Assembly: GCA_024278215.1 (NCBI GenBank)
Contig: JAJRTR010000159.1
Coordinates: 1 to 12,452 of the forward strand
Source: a bacterium
GTDB taxonomy: Bacteria > UBP15 > UBA6099 > JAJRTR01
DNA: 12,452 bases
Reading direction: 5' to 3'
The position numbers and the translations under genes were made by a program. The stretch's first letter is position 1, and the number at the start of each line of letters is the position of its first letter. The notes beneath the pieces are model-generated. The model did not search any database, had not been told where the DNA came from, and worked only from the letters and a program-made list of their open reading frames with translations. Shown here one piece after another: positions 4,124 to 7,813 of this stretch.

Positions 4124-4978
4124 ATGCCGTCAACAGCGATAATTGGTGGAAGCGGACTGTACAACCTCGAAATCGAAAACGCGAAAACTGTAAAAACAGA
4201 AACTCCGTTCGGCGACCCGTCGGAAGAGATTCTGGTCGGAAAACTCGGCGGCGTGGAAGCCGCTTTTCTCGCGCGTCACGGTCGCGGGCATACGATCACA
4301 CCGTCGGAGATAAACTTCCGCGCTAACGTATGGGCGCTGGCGTCGCTGGGTGTCGAGCGGGTGATTTCCATCAGCGCCGTGGGCGGCATGAAGGAAGAAA
4401 ACTCGCCGGGCACTCTCGTATTCCCAGACAATTTTATTGATAACACGCGCTCGCGCCGGAAGACTTTTTACACCGACGGATTCGTCGGCCACATCTCGCT
4501 TGCGCACCCAGTGTGCCCCGAGATGCGCAGGCTTCTGTATGAGTCGGGAAAACGACAGGGTTATGATGTCCGCGACGGCGGCACCTATATATGTATCGAG
4601 GGACCGAACTTCTCGACGCGCGCCGAGTCGCTCGTGTATCGCAGTTGGGACGTCGACGTTATCGGCATGACGAATGTGCCCGAGATGAACCTGTGCCGCG
4701 AGGCTGGGATGTGCTATGCGACTATCGCCTGCGTAACGGATTACGACTGCTGGCGCGAGGAGGACGAGGGCGTCAACATCGACGACATACTCAGAACACT
4801 CAGGGAGAATGTGAGCAAGGCCATATCCATCGTCGCCGACACGATCGGCGCAGTCGCGGGCGAAAGAAGCTGTGACTGCCTCGCGGTGTCGAAGATGGCA
4901 CCGCTGACGCAACTGAAAGATATTCCCAATAATAAGAAGTCCGATCTCGAACCGATACTCAGGCGTATTATAAGCTGA
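4124..4978 (+). CDS. mtnP: S-methyl-5'-thioadenosine phosphorylase
   Basis: A 284-residue trimeric-type purine nucleoside phosphorylase of the MTAP branch. It cleaves 5'-methylthioadenosine, the by-product of aminopropyl transfer, to adenine and 5-methylthioribose 1-phosphate in the cytosol. Visible motifs are GGSGLY (8-13), the phosphate-site RHGRGH (51-56), EGPNFSTRAES (159-169), the sugar-site GMTNVPE (181-187) and TDYDCW (205-210). Its two aspartates fit recognition of a 6-amino purine, which separates MTAP from guanosine/inosine phosphorylases. Length is normal. The ribosome site GGGAG (4112-4116) lies 7 bases before the ATG. It is the first of three polyamine-related genes on this strand, so its role is probably product removal for the aminopropyltransferase downstream. 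A broader adenosine phosphorylase activity cannot be excluded. Confidence 0.93.
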   Translation: MPSTAIIGGSGLYNLEIENAKTVKTETPFGDPSEEILVGKLGGVEAAFLARHGRGHTITPSEINFRANVWALASLGVERVISISAVGGMKEENSPGTLVFPDNFIDNTRSRRKTFYTDGFVGHISLAHPVCPEMRRLLYESGKRQGYDVRDGGTYICIEGPNFSTRAESLVYRSWDVDVIGMTNVPEMNLCREAGMCYATIACVTDYDCWREEDEGVNIDDILRTLRENVSKAISIVADTIGAVAGERSCDCLAVSKMAPLTQLKDIPNNKKSDLEPILRRIIS

Positions 4979-5175
4979 CAGCGTTTTTCATCTTTTTTTT
5001 CGCTTGACGCTTCCATCGTTACTGCCAGGTGAGCCGGGGCAAAACAGGGCCCCGGAACGATAAGAAATTCGGTTCCCGGTGTTCAACGCTTTTGTTTTTA
5101 CCGAATCCCGAACTCCGATTATCAGACACCGGCCTGTTCGGTTCCGGCTATGCCGGGTTAGGGAAACACGTTCAA
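4979..5175 (+). other. Structured leader between mtnP and the fusion gene
   Basis: This 197-base interval is treated as non-coding, although the downstream frame is open back to a GTG at 5029. Codon choice there (ctt ttg ttt tta, cgg, ggg) is unlike the gene body, and family members begin near the later ATG. It contains an 8-T tract soon after the mtnP stop (4993-5000), a 7-bp GC hairpin (CCGGGGC 5034-5040 with GCCCCGG 5049-5055), and a smaller one (CCGGC 5144-5148 with GCCGG 5152-5156). I do not recognise a known riboswitch class. It may be a leader, or a terminator followed by a new start of transcription. Confidence 0.4.
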
Positions 5176-7317
5176 ATGGAATCGCTAACAGAAGATGTGG
5201 CGGCGGCGGTGGACTTGCGTGAAGGCCCCGAGGGTGTGCGCTCGATAATCGAAGCGGTGCCTTCCGGCGGTGGTATCCCGCTGAAAGAACTTGCCCGAAG
5301 TGTGCGGCTTCCGCTGCCTGTTGTCGCCGCCGTGCGCCGTGAACTCGAGAAAAGAAATGTCTTCATACGCAGTGGCGGAGTGGCGCTTTCGGAATACGGC
5401 AGGGAGCTTCTTCAATCATCCGGCGGCGCGACGGACGTCGATTTCCGTTGCGAAGCGTGCGGCGGGTCCGGCAGCAGCATACCGGATAACCTGCGCGGAC
5501 TTCTCGACACTGTCGAAAAAGCGTTCGGGGACATGCCGCGTGTTGATGTAAGTCTTGACCAGGCTTTCGCAACAGCGGAAACGTCCTTGAAACGCGCTAT
5601 GCTCGCACTCGAACGCGGCACGCTGGCGGGCAGGTGCGTCGCTTTCCTCGGCGACGACGACCTCGTCTCTTTTTCCGCCGCGCTGCTCCTGCGTGAACTC
5701 GGCGCGGACGGTTCCACCGAACTCGTCGTTTTTGAAATCGACAAAAGAATCACTGCTTATATTCATGCCCTTGCCGACGCGCACGGACTCGGCGTCAGGT
5801 GTGTCGAACATGATTTGAGACACCCGTTCCCCATCGAGTTTAAAGAATCGTTCCACTGTTTCTTCGCCGATCCGCCCTATACGCTGCCGGGGCTGAAGCT
5901 GTTTTTGTCGCGCGGCGCCGAGTTGTTGCGCCGGAAATCCGGTCTGCACGCGTTTCTTTCTTTTGCGCACAAGGACCCGGAATTCACAGTCGAGATGTTC
6001 GCCCTGATAGCCGAGACAGGCTTTGCCGTCGCGGAGGTCGCGCCCGGTTTCAATATGTATCGCGGCGCGGACATCATCGGCAACACCGGACAGATGATAC
6101 ACCTTAAAAGCTCCGCCGTAACGACATCCTTGCTCGATACCGGAAAGTATTCGCTTCCCATATATACCGGCGAGTTGAAAGTTACCGTCAGGAACTATGT
6201 CTGTGCCGCTTGCGGCGAAAAGACGGAAGTGGGCCGGGGGGCCGCGCTCCACACTATCGAAGAGCTTAAAGAGGCCGGTTGCCCCGTCTGCGGCGGAAAA
6301 AAGTTCCGCTTCAAGGGCAGGAAAAAAGCTGTGGCCGGTGCGAGCGCAGCCGAAAAAAGCTGTATAAGAAGCAGTGTCGACACATACAGGAAGGTCTTTT
6401 TCGAAGGGATCGAACTCAACAGGCTGCACCCCGAAGACGCGGCGGAACTGAAAAGAGGATTCGCCGGCGCGGGCGCGCGGGCGTGGTGCTGTTTCGTGCC
6501 GTTTCTGCATTTCACGAGCGAGGCGGCGCGCAGGCAGATATACTGGAAGCGCGGCGCGGACGGTCCGATCATTCTATATCGCAAAGAGAAGAGCAGCATA
6601 AAATGGGAACTCTACACGCTGGCGGCTTCGACGCGCGCCGGTGCGCTCGAAGCGGTCGAACTGATGGACCGGCTGAACGGAAATCGACTTGGTCGCATCC
6701 TGTGGGCGGGCGCGCTGCAGGCCGAGTTGCTGAAGGGTGACAGAAGTTTCTCCGTCGAATACCGTGACAGCGAATACTTATATGACGCCGCGCGCGTAGC
6801 CGCACTCAAAGGACCCGAATTCGCGGACGTTCGAAAAAAGCTAAACAGGTTTGCGCGCGAGAATCCCGGCGTCGAGTTCGTCGAAATGAAGCCGGAGGAT
6901 ATACCGGAATGCCTGCGGCTGCTTGAAGCGTGGGACGCGGCGTATCGGGAGCGCAACATTGAAGCGCCGCTTCTCGATCACGATTACACAAAAAACGCGC
7001 TGGCGCGATTCGATGATTTTGCCGCGCCCGACTTTATGGGCTGGACACTGAAAGCGGCGGGCCGCATTGCGGCATTCGCGCTTGCCGGGGAGATGACGCC
7101 GCAACTTGCGAACTTTTTCGCGCTCAAAACAGACCTCGACATCAGGGGTTGCAGCGCATACATGCGGTGGCGGGTTATCGGATTCCTCGCGGGCCTCGGA
7201 TACAGCCGCGTCAACGATGCCTCGGACCTCAATCTGCCCGGTTTGAAACGGCACAAATCGAAATTCCGACCCGTCGAGAAACTCGACATCTACAAGATTC
7301 TGCGAAGAAGGGATTGA
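5176..7317 (+). CDS. BpsA-type aminopropyltransferase fused to zinc ribbon and DUF2156 domain
   Basis: A 713-residue protein counted from ATG 5176; an extension from GTG 5029 would add 49 residues but looks non-coding. Residues 1-80 resemble the winged-helix start of branched-chain polyamine synthase (BpsA, DUF43), followed by its CEACGG motif (92-97). The catalytic half (about 100-310) keeps the family signature GDDD (159-162), an acidic strand FEID (186-189), DLR (213-215) and DPPYT (232-236). Known BpsA enzymes move aminopropyl groups from decarboxylated SAM onto spermidine. A four-cysteine zinc ribbon follows (C343, C346, C369, C372). Residues from about 400 to the end match the DUF2156 / lysylphosphatidylglycerol-synthase C-terminal type of paired GNAT folds, including YLYDAARVAALKG (534-546) and the terminal DLNLPGLKRHKSKF (684-697). 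The neighbours mtnP and speD support a polyamine role. The function of the DUF2156 half, possibly acylating or aminoacylating the polyamine, is inference. GGG lies about 12 bases before the chosen ATG. Confidence 0.85.
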   Translation: MESLTEDVAAAVDLREGPEGVRSIIEAVPSGGGIPLKELARSVRLPLPVVAAVRRELEKRNVFIRSGGVALSEYGRELLQSSGGATDVDFRCEACGGSGSSIPDNLRGLLDTVEKAFGDMPRVDVSLDQAFATAETSLKRAMLALERGTLAGRCVAFLGDDDLVSFSAALLLRELGADGSTELVVFEIDKRITAYIHALADAHGLGVRCVEHDLRHPFPIEFKESFHCFFADPPYTLPGLKLFLSRGAELLRRKSGLHAFLSFAHKDPEFTVEMFALIAETGFAVAEVAPGFNMYRGADIIGNTGQMIHLKSSAVTTSLLDTGKYSLPIYTGELKVTVRNYVCAACGEKTEVGRGAALHTIEELKEAGCPVCGGKKFRFKGRKKAVAGASAAEKSCIRSSVDTYRKVFFEGIELNRLHPEDAAELKRGFAGAGARAWCCFVPFLHFTSEAARRQIYWKRGADGPIILYRKEKSSIKWELYTLAASTRAGALEAVELMDRLNGNRLGRILWAGALQAELLKGDRSFSVEYRDSEYLYDAARVAALKGPEFADVRKKLNRFARENPGVEFVEMKPEDIPECLRLLEAWDAAYRERNIEAPLLDHDYTKNALARFDDFAAPDFMGWTLKAAGRIAAFALAGEMTPQLANFFALKTDLDIRGCSAYMRWRVIGFLAGLGYSRVNDASDLNLPGLKRHKSKFRPVEKLDIYKILRRRD

Positions 7318-7396
7318 GTTTTTTATCTGCCGTCTTCTTTCATTTTCAGAAACCGTATATATTTGAAATGTTGTGAACTATCGTTCAGGAGAAGAG

Positions 7397-7813
7397 ATGC
7401 CGGAAGAAAAACACGTAGAAAAAATGAGTTCGCTGGAACTCGATTTCAGCGGCGCGATGGAACAGGCGGACAGAGACCTTGTGCGCACACTGGGCACACA
7501 GGTGACATTCTGGGGCTTCGGCTGCGACCGCGAAGCTATCGACGCGCCCTGCAAGATTGTGCTGGAGATGGAAAAATACGTCGCCGCCAATAAGTTGACA
7601 TTAAAAGACAAACTCGTTTCGCGCTTCGAGCCGCAGGGACTGACCGTAGTGCTCGTGCTCGAGGAGTCGCATCTGCTCGTGAACACATGGCCCGAGCACG
7701 GCGTGATACAGGTAGAGATTTTCTCCTGCCGAGAGATTGAAACCGGCGGCATGTTGGAAATCTTCGAGCGGGTCTTCAAGTCCGCCAGGACATATATGCA
7801 CGAGTTGAAATAA
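7397..7813 (+). CDS. speD: SpeD-type S-adenosylmethionine decarboxylase with altered active-site residues
   Basis: A 138-residue pyruvoyl enzyme of the bacterial/archaeal SpeD class. It would decarboxylate SAM to provide the aminopropyl donor for the enzyme encoded just upstream. The proenzyme should self-cleave between E90 and S91 in LEESHLLVNTWPEHG (88-102), S91 becoming the pyruvoyl group. The catalytic cysteine is C111, 20 residues after the serine as in the Thermotoga enzyme (S63 and C83). Two processing residues differ: the Thermotoga H68 position is N96, and S55 is T83. Either processing works with these replacements or the enzyme has changed substrate; SpeD relatives that decarboxylate ornithine or arginine are known. 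The start at 7397 is set by AGGAG (7387-7391); the frame is open back to a GTG at 7373. The gene follows the fusion gene by 79 bases. Confidence 0.85.
   Translation: MPEEKHVEKMSSLELDFSGAMEQADRDLVRTLGTQVTFWGFGCDREAIDAPCKIVLEMEKYVAANKLTLKDKLVSRFEPQGLTVVLVLEESHLLVNTWPEHGVIQVEIFSCREIETGGMLEIFERVFKSARTYMHELK

What the first reader, a model, noticed from the sequence alone, without database searches (positions are those of the whole stretch)
5176..7317. Aminopropyltransferase fused through a zinc ribbon to a DUF2156 acyltransferase-like module
Seen: one uninterrupted frame joins an intact BpsA-type catalytic half (GDDD, DPPYT), a four-cysteine ribbon and a roughly 310-residue DUF2156 module. Known: BpsA transfers aminopropyl groups to polyamines; DUF2156-type C-terminal domains in MprF-like proteins transfer amino acids from aminoacyl-tRNA to lipids. 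Inferred: the fusion makes a polyamine and then conjugates it (aminoacyl or acyl polyamine), or modifies a lipid or other acceptor with aminopropyl units. I know of no described pathway with this pairing.
Basis: partly seen in the sequence, partly recalled or inferred. Interest (0 to 1): 0.82.

Follow-up and report, generated by a model that had tools for sequence, protein, structure and literature searches.

The report
Polyamine synthase fused to acyltransferase-fold module
One bacterial gene joins an enzyme half that builds polyamines to a second half shaped like enzymes that hand over amino acids from transfer RNA, and in another phylum the same two halves sit side by side as separate genes in all 23 genomes that carry the second one, which points to an undescribed pathway that makes and then caps a polyamine.

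Summary
Frame 5176-7317 (+) encodes 713 aa: BpsA-type aminopropyltransferase (GDDD at 159, DPPYT at 232), a Cys4 ribbon (C343, C346, C369, C372) and a tandem-GNAT DUF2156 module. It lies between MTA phosphorylase and an AdoMet-decarboxylase homologue. The single-ORF fusion was found only here, but the pairing recurs. In one phylum (Latescibacterota-like) all 23 genomes with this DUF2156 subfamily have BpsA directly upstream on the same strand (two with SpeD between). The 14 BpsA-linked DUF2156 modules examined form one clade (100/100). Related ribbon-BpsAs are fused or adjacent to a single-domain GNAT in Bathyarchaeota, Streptomyces, Paenibacillus and Acetivibrio, and fused to SpeD in others, so the aminopropyltransferase reading and a post-synthetic N-acylation theme are both supported. 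The DUF2156 model resembles tRNA-dependent transferases (MprF, FemX, Sbb17) more than acyl-CoA tandem GNATs; it lacks the CoA loop and keeps the GLxxxK lysine. Best reading: a bifunctional enzyme that aminopropylates an amine and then N-aminoacylates (or N-acylates) the polyamine. Donor, acceptor and activity are untested. Caution: the genome's only SpeD has Asn where catalytic His68 is expected. New variant of known kinds; interest 0.62.

The parts
5176..6090 (+). BpsA-type aminopropyltransferase module (residues 1-305): winged-helix-like N-terminal part and Rossmann catalytic core; GDDD 159-162, DPPYT 232-236, FNMY 292-295
   Evidence: Pfam BpsA_C E 2e-40; phmmer to T. kodakarensis BpsA 5xnc E 3e-25; model pLDDT 92, best fold 5xnc Z 29.9
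6163..6174 (+). Y330-T-G-E333: tyrosine and acidic residue at the place of the BpsA C-terminal acidic tail; an acidic residue at this position in the ribbon-type and Latescibacterota rows read
   Evidence: alignments A1 and A4; equivalence to the acidic aminopropyl-carrier tail of Tk-BpsA is inferred, not tested
6202..6291 (+). Cys4 zinc ribbon, C343-x2-C346 and C369-x2-C372
   Evidence: weak Pfam Zn_ribbon_8 hit 341-377; positions; conserved in BpsAs of Bacillota, Actinomycetota and, in part, Bathyarchaeota, absent from most Latescibacterota BpsAs
6331..6480 (+). linker and first helices before the DUF2156 core; contains a possible internal GTG start at 6331
   Evidence: low-confidence first 20 residues of the model
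6484..7314 (+). DUF2156 (LPG_synthase_C) tandem-GNAT module, residues ~437-713; VNDASDL at 679 and GLKRHK (K694) motifs
   Evidence: Pfam E 2e-16; AlphaFold model pLDDT 92.8; 2HQY Z 31.8, MprF Z ~20, FemX Z 19.4, Sbb17 Z 18.4; one clade with 13 other BpsA-linked modules, 100/100
7373..7813 (+). speD homologue (AdoMet decarboxylase family), 55 nt after the fusion; the pyruvoyl-forming Ser and the Cys are present, Asn replaces the catalytic His
   Evidence: Pfam AdoMet_dc E 1e-19; alignment of the ESH..(H/N)TWPE...C block; the only SpeD in the genome
4124..4978 (+). S-methyl-5'-thioadenosine phosphorylase, recycles MTA, the by-product of aminopropyl transfer
   Evidence: NCBIfam TIGR01694 above its cut-off, 307 bits

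Best explanation
The protein is a bifunctional polyamine-modifying enzyme. The BpsA half takes the aminopropyl group of decarboxylated AdoMet (made by the neighbouring SpeD) and adds it to an amine such as agmatine, putrescine or spermidine, releasing MTA, which the neighbouring phosphorylase recycles. The DUF2156 half then transfers an acyl group, most likely an amino acid from aminoacyl-tRNA, to an amino group of that polyamine. Shown here: the two modules, their folds, the operon, and conservation of the pair. Inferred: both catalytic activities, their order, the acceptor and the donor.
For: BpsA half: fold and GDDD/DPP residues of BpsA; SpeD and MTAP next door; close relatives are fused to SpeD in Clostridia, Bacteroidota and WWE3, so decarboxylated AdoMet is the likely donor. 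Pair conservation: in the phylum of G287, 23 of 64 genomes hold this DUF2156 subfamily, all 23 directly behind BpsA on the same strand (65-146 nt between domain matches, or 647 nt with SpeD between); hypergeometric p 3e-12 for co-occurrence, not corrected for kinship, in 9 genera. The 14 BpsA-linked DUF2156 form one clade, 100/100, against 24 others; none of the 45 sampled genomes with ordinary DUF2156 has BpsA above cut-off. Same logic with another acyltransferase: BpsA-GNAT fused in Bathyarchaeota and Streptomyces, adjacent in Paenibacillus, Acetivibrio and others. In G287 and G400 the only aminopropyltransferase found is this BpsA (no SpeE; in G401 only a 23-bit trace) and pyruvoyl arginine decarboxylase is present, so agmatine is a candidate acceptor. 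aa-tRNA donor: nearest folds after 2HQY are MprF, FemX and Sbb17/Sba18 (Z 18-21) ahead of acyl-CoA tandem GNATs (Z 15 and below); CoA loop [QR]xxGx[GA] absent in 38/38 and the GLxxxK lysine (K694) invariant, also in MprF; a C-terminal lysine is catalytic in FemX (K305) and DhpH-C (K329) (PMC12945691); the K694-K305 match is inferred.
Against: No activity has been shown for any member of this BpsA subgroup or of this DUF2156 subfamily. The closest solved structure, 2HQY, has no known function. The window SpeD carries Asn at the position of T. maritima His68 and is the genome's only SpeD, so decarboxylated AdoMet supply is uncertain. The Glu259 equivalent of Tk-BpsA is not conserved and the acidic carrier tail is reduced to one residue. 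No clear diamine-forming decarboxylase was found in G000. BpsA phylogeny mildly rejects one origin for the DUF2156-linked BpsAs (p 0.03-0.04), so the pairing may be older or re-formed.
Confidence: 0.45

Rival explanations
1. The DUF2156 half is an acyl-CoA or acyl-ACP N-acyltransferase, so the product is an acetyl- or fatty-acyl polyamine, not an aminoacyl one.
For: The partner enzymes in Bathyarchaeota are ordinary GNATs, four of five with the CoA loop RxxGxG; GNAT-fold polyamine acetyltransferases are known (one, DpA 8A9N, is among the fold matches); tandem GNATs using acyl-CoA have Z 14-15.
Against: CoA loop absent in the DUF2156 family, 38/38 rows; tRNA-dependent transferases are the better fold matches.
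Confidence: 0.2
2. The aminopropylated or aminoacylated acceptor is a lipid or a macromolecule (nucleic acid or protein), not a free polyamine.
For: DUF2156 domains of MprF act on phosphatidylglycerol (PMC8131360); a conserved gene for a membrane-like protein without Pfam match lies just upstream of BpsA-DUF2156 in Latescibacterota; the BpsA fold is near METTL5-type RNA methyltransferases (Z 20); zinc ribbons often bind nucleic acid.
Against: No membrane domain in the fusion; BpsA itself (Z 30) is well above METTL5; MTAP, SpeD and SpeD fusions point to small-molecule polyamine metabolism.
Confidence: 0.12
3. The BpsA-like half is a SAM-dependent N-methyltransferase (DPPY motif), so the protein makes a methylated and acylated amine.
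For: DPPYT resembles amino-methyltransferase motifs and weak hits to N6-adenine methylase families occur.
Against: SpeD is fused or adjacent in many relatives, MTAP is adjacent here, and BpsA structures are the top fold matches.
Confidence: 0.06
4. The DUF2156 half does not catalyse; it senses polyamine or charged tRNA and regulates BpsA.
For: Function of the 2HQY group is unknown; some GNAT-fold domains are regulatory.
Against: Many invariant polar residues in the subfamily, including the VNDAxDL motif and K694, and parallel fusions with a different GNAT.
Confidence: 0.1
5. The single reading frame is an assembly or base-call error joining two separate genes.
For: No second BpsA-DUF2156 single-ORF fusion found in the 386 relatives, 64 genomes of the G287 phylum or 75 loci; none of the six other held genomes of its phylum has the DUF2156 module; an in-frame GTG with AGGA upstream exists at 6331.
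Against: Uniform codon GC3 through the junction (0.58-0.75), an intact linker of about 50 residues, and the same C-terminal fusion site used with GNAT and SpeD in other lineages.
Confidence: 0.07

Closest known systems
BpsA, branched-chain polyamine synthase (Thermococcus kodakarensis, Thermus thermophilus; PDB 5XNC, 6J27; EC 2.5.1.128)
   Same: Catalytic fold (Z ~30), GDDD, the Asp of DPP, FNxY; fits an AdoMet-decarboxylase/MTAP context
   Different: Acidic C-terminal tail replaced by YTGE plus a Cys4 ribbon and a 330-residue second module; Glu259 position not kept; relatives widespread in genera not known as thermophiles
2HQY, Bacteroides thetaiotaomicron DUF2156 protein of unknown function
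   Same: Nearest solved relative of the second module (Z 31.8; profile E 1.5e-20)
   Different: Scores with the other DUF2156 clade, which is not linked to BpsA; function unknown
MprF (aminoacyl-phosphatidylglycerol synthase) C-terminal DUF2156 domain
   Same: Tandem-GNAT fold (Z ~20), GLxxxK...P motif
   Different: No transmembrane flippase part; no significant sequence match (best E 0.01-0.2); likely soluble acceptor
FemX and natural-product aminoacyl-tRNA transferases (Orf11, Sbb17/Sba18 acting on streptothrisamine; DhpH-C, PacB)
   Same: Fold (Z 18-19); precedent for tRNA-dependent amide formation on a small amine
   Different: Not detected in the PDB profile searches by sequence; none known to me to act on polyamines
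gamma-Glutamylpolyamine synthetases (GlnA2, GlnA3) and SpeG-type polyamine acetyltransferases
   Same: Conjugate an acyl group to a polyamine
   Different: Glutamine-synthetase-like or single-GNAT enzymes; ATP- or CoA-dependent; catabolic or detoxifying; not known to be fused to a synthase

Membership tests
BpsA / PF01861 family | Curated profile match and BpsA fold | tested here: met
   138.8 bits against a cut-off of 27; 5xnc Z 29.9, 2.7 A over 233 residues
BpsA / PF01861 family | GDDD motif and DPP aspartate (Asp159, Asp160, Asp225 in T. kodakarensis) | tested here: met
   G159-D162 and D232 align with them; invariant in 49 rows
BpsA / PF01861 family | C-terminal acidic cluster that carries the aminopropyl group | tested here: not met
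   Replaced by YTGE and the ribbon, one acidic residue left; definition from PMC12979288
BpsA / PF01861 family | Aminopropyl transfer from decarboxylated AdoMet giving branched polyamines | not testable with these tools
   needs an assay
DUF2156 / PF09924 (LPG_synthase_C) | Curated profile match and tandem-GNAT fold | tested here: met
   60.3 bits against a cut-off of 27.5; 2HQY Z 31.8
MprF | N-terminal membrane flippase joined to the synthase domain | tested here: not met
   N-terminal partner is BpsA plus ribbon
MprF | Sequence membership among aminoacyl-phosphatidylglycerol synthases | tested here: inconclusive
   Best MprF sequence match E 0.013-0.2 while 2HQY is 1e-20 to 1e-86; fold shared
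aminoacyl-tRNA-dependent GNAT-fold transferases | Two GNAT folds, no CoA pyrophosphate loop, catalytic C-terminal lysine | tested here: inconclusive
   First two met; an invariant lysine is present, but its match to FemX Lys305 was not superposed
aminoacyl-tRNA-dependent GNAT-fold transferases | Use of charged tRNA | not testable with these tools
   needs an assay
AdoMet decarboxylase class 1b (window speD) | Ser63, His68, Cys83 of T. maritima | tested here: not met
   Ser and Cys present, His replaced by Asn; residue roles from PMC10407285

The most novel reading that the evidence does not exclude
A tRNA-dependent branch of polyamine metabolism: an aminopropyltransferase coupled to an aminoacyl-tRNA transferase makes aminoacyl-polyamines, linking charged-tRNA pools to polyamine chemistry, with GNAT-based versions in archaea and other bacteria.
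Probability: 0.3. Interest if true: 0.85.

Novelty: new variant of a known kind. Interest (0 to 1): 0.62.

Why it matters
BpsA is known for branched polyamines in thermophiles. Here is a large, uncharacterised BpsA branch in Bacillota, Actinomycetota, Bathyarchaeota, Latescibacterota and others that repeatedly teams with acyltransferase-fold enzymes. If the inference is right, these organisms make capped polyamines that have not been looked for, and the DUF2156 version would be a tRNA-dependent route to them. The hypothesis is directly testable with a handful of cloned genes and mass spectrometry, and it would give a function to one clade of the DUF2156 family, whose nearest solved structure has been 'unknown function' since 2006.

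Tried and rejected
A genome-contig scan with the whole fusion protein found no relative; a scan with the BpsA-ribbon alignment gave 75 loci. One alignment mixing BpsA and DUF2156 rows was useless because MAFFT placed the DUF2156 rows over BpsA, so the halves were modelled separately and their relative orientation is unknown. Searches of open-licence papers for DUF2156 with polyamine, BpsA fusions, aminoacyl-polyamines or FkbH with aminopropyl found no description; absence there is weak evidence, because subscription papers are not held and some queries were narrow. One origin for all DUF2156-linked BpsAs was tested and is mildly disfavoured, so I do not claim it. The methyltransferase and artefact readings were considered and rated low (see rivals).

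Full report
OBSERVATION. The frame 5176-7317 on the + strand encodes 713 residues without a stop. Pfam places BpsA_C at 110-305 (E 2e-40), LPG_synthase_C, the former DUF2156, at 525-706 (E 2e-16), and a weak zinc ribbon at 341-377. GDDD is at 159, DPPYT at 232, and the ribbon cysteines are C343, C346, C369 and C372. The open frame extends upstream to GTG 5029, so the start codon is not certain.

SURROUNDINGS. Upstream is an MTA phosphorylase (4124-4978; TIGR01694 above cut-off). Downstream, 55 nt away, is an AdoMet decarboxylase homologue (7373-7813, E 1e-19). MTA is the by-product and decarboxylated AdoMet the donor of aminopropyl transfer, so the three genes read as one polyamine gene cluster. 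The whole genome (G000, 4.5 Mb, 95% complete) has only this SpeD and no canonical spermidine synthase, only two weaker hits inside long frames.

FOLD OF EACH HALF. A model of residues 1-390 (pLDDT 92.2) matches T. kodakarensis BpsA 5xnc (Z 29.9, 2.7 A over 233 residues) well above RNA methyltransferases (Z 20 and below). A model of the C-terminal 330 residues (pLDDT 92.8) is a tandem GNAT: 2HQY of unknown function Z 31.8, then MprF synthase domains Z 19-21, FemX 18-19, the streptothrisamine-modifying tRNA-dependent enzymes Sbb17/Sba18 about 18, and only then acyl-CoA tandem GNATs (15.0 and below).

THE PAIRING IS CONSERVED. A survey of 386 genomes for PF01861 separated thermophile-type BpsAs from a divergent group. 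G287 has BpsA-ribbon, SpeD and a stand-alone DUF2156 as three overlapping genes, and that DUF2156 is 33% identical to the window's module over 277 residues. In the phylum of G287 (64 genomes) 23 have this DUF2156 subfamily at 339-504 bits and 29 have BpsA. All 23 DUF2156 genes lie directly behind BpsA on the same strand, two of them with SpeD between. The fusion into one frame was seen only in the window.

THE SUBFAMILY. Ordinary DUF2156 proteins of 45 other sampled genomes score 21-88 bits with the same profile, and none of those genomes has BpsA above the cut-off. In a tree, the 14 BpsA-linked modules form one clade at 100/100 against 24 others. The BpsA tree does not show one clade for the DUF2156-linked BpsAs (AU p 0.03-0.04), so repeated or exchanged pairing is possible.

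OTHER PARTNERS. A scan of 84,980 named species genomes with the ribbon-BpsA alignment gave 75 loci. Domain scans show BpsA-ribbon-GNAT fusions in Bathyarchaeota and Streptomyces and BpsA-AdoMet decarboxylase fusions in Clostridia and Dysgonamonadaceae. An HMM built from some of these GNATs finds the same GNAT right behind BpsA in Paenibacillus, Acetivibrio, Eubacteriaceae, Streptosporangiaceae and Allokutzneria, several followed by an FkbH-domain protein. SpeD fusion makes decarboxylated AdoMet the likely BpsA substrate; recurrent GNAT-fold partners make a second, acyl-transfer step likely.

MECHANISM. GDDD and the DPP aspartate of BpsA are kept. In T. kodakarensis BpsA, acidic C-terminal residues carry the aminopropyl group (PMC12979288). 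Here that tail is reduced to Y-T-x-[E/D], followed by the ribbon, so a single carrier residue (E333) or direct transfer is conceivable; this is inference. In the DUF2156 half the CoA pyrophosphate loop is absent in 38 of 38 rows and a GLxxxK lysine (K694) is invariant, also in MprF. A C-terminal lysine is catalytic in FemX and DhpH-C (PMC12945691). I therefore prefer aminoacyl-tRNA as donor, at roughly two to one over acyl-CoA. In G287 and G400 no spermidine synthase was found, and in G401 only a 23-bit trace, while pyruvoyl arginine decarboxylase is present, so agmatine is a candidate acceptor there.

WEAK POINTS. The window SpeD has Asn where T. maritima His68 is needed for processing and catalysis (PMC10407285). 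No clear diamine-forming decarboxylase was found in G000; the two PF02784 hits were not resolved between lysine/DAP and ornithine/arginine decarboxylases. No member of either subfamily has been assayed. The fusion itself rests on one MAG contig.

VERDICT. A real, recurrent association of two known enzyme kinds in a new arrangement, not described in the papers searched: new variant of a known kind. The tRNA-dependent reading would be the most surprising outcome and is not excluded.

Noticed in passing
L055, L051, L102, L073, L079, L087, L092 (about 5000-7700): A conserved gene trio ribbon-BpsA, GNAT, FkbH-domain protein (TIGR01686) in Bacillota and Actinomycetota, in L051 and L102 beside a large PKS-like ORF: possibly an unrecognised aminopropyl/acyl pathway.
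   Followed up: partly
L069:137-1681, L085:2648-4186, L088:4932-6560, L117:4653-5990: BpsA fused C-terminally to AdoMet decarboxylase in Clostridia, Dysgonamonadaceae and WWE3.
   Followed up: partly
window 7373-7813: speD homologue with Asn at the catalytic His position (ESHLLVNTWPE); either inactive, altered in substrate, or differently processed.
   Followed up: partly
L108, L111-L116, L118, L120, L122 (Nocardiopsis): BpsA-like proteins with GDHD instead of GDDD (read in L108, L111, L116) and a C-terminal region of about 250 residues without a Pfam match in the one scanned.
   Followed up: no
L179, L180, L181 (G423, G424, G429): BpsA with a C-terminal extension of about 220 residues without ribbon, DUF2156 or clear Pfam match.
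   Followed up: no
L097:3893-4978 and equivalents in 11 other loci: A conserved gene, by its sequence a membrane protein, without Pfam match directly upstream of BpsA-DUF2156 in Latescibacterota.
   Followed up: partly
G402, G406, G409, G410 (L196, L198, L203, L207): SpeD and SpeE matches in one 409-439 aa frame (SpeD-SpeE fusions) in genomes that also hold the BpsA-DUF2156 pair.
   Followed up: no
L045:113-2505, L046:5861-7012 (G269): Three divergent BpsA-like paralogues in one genome, two of them in tandem.
   Followed up: no
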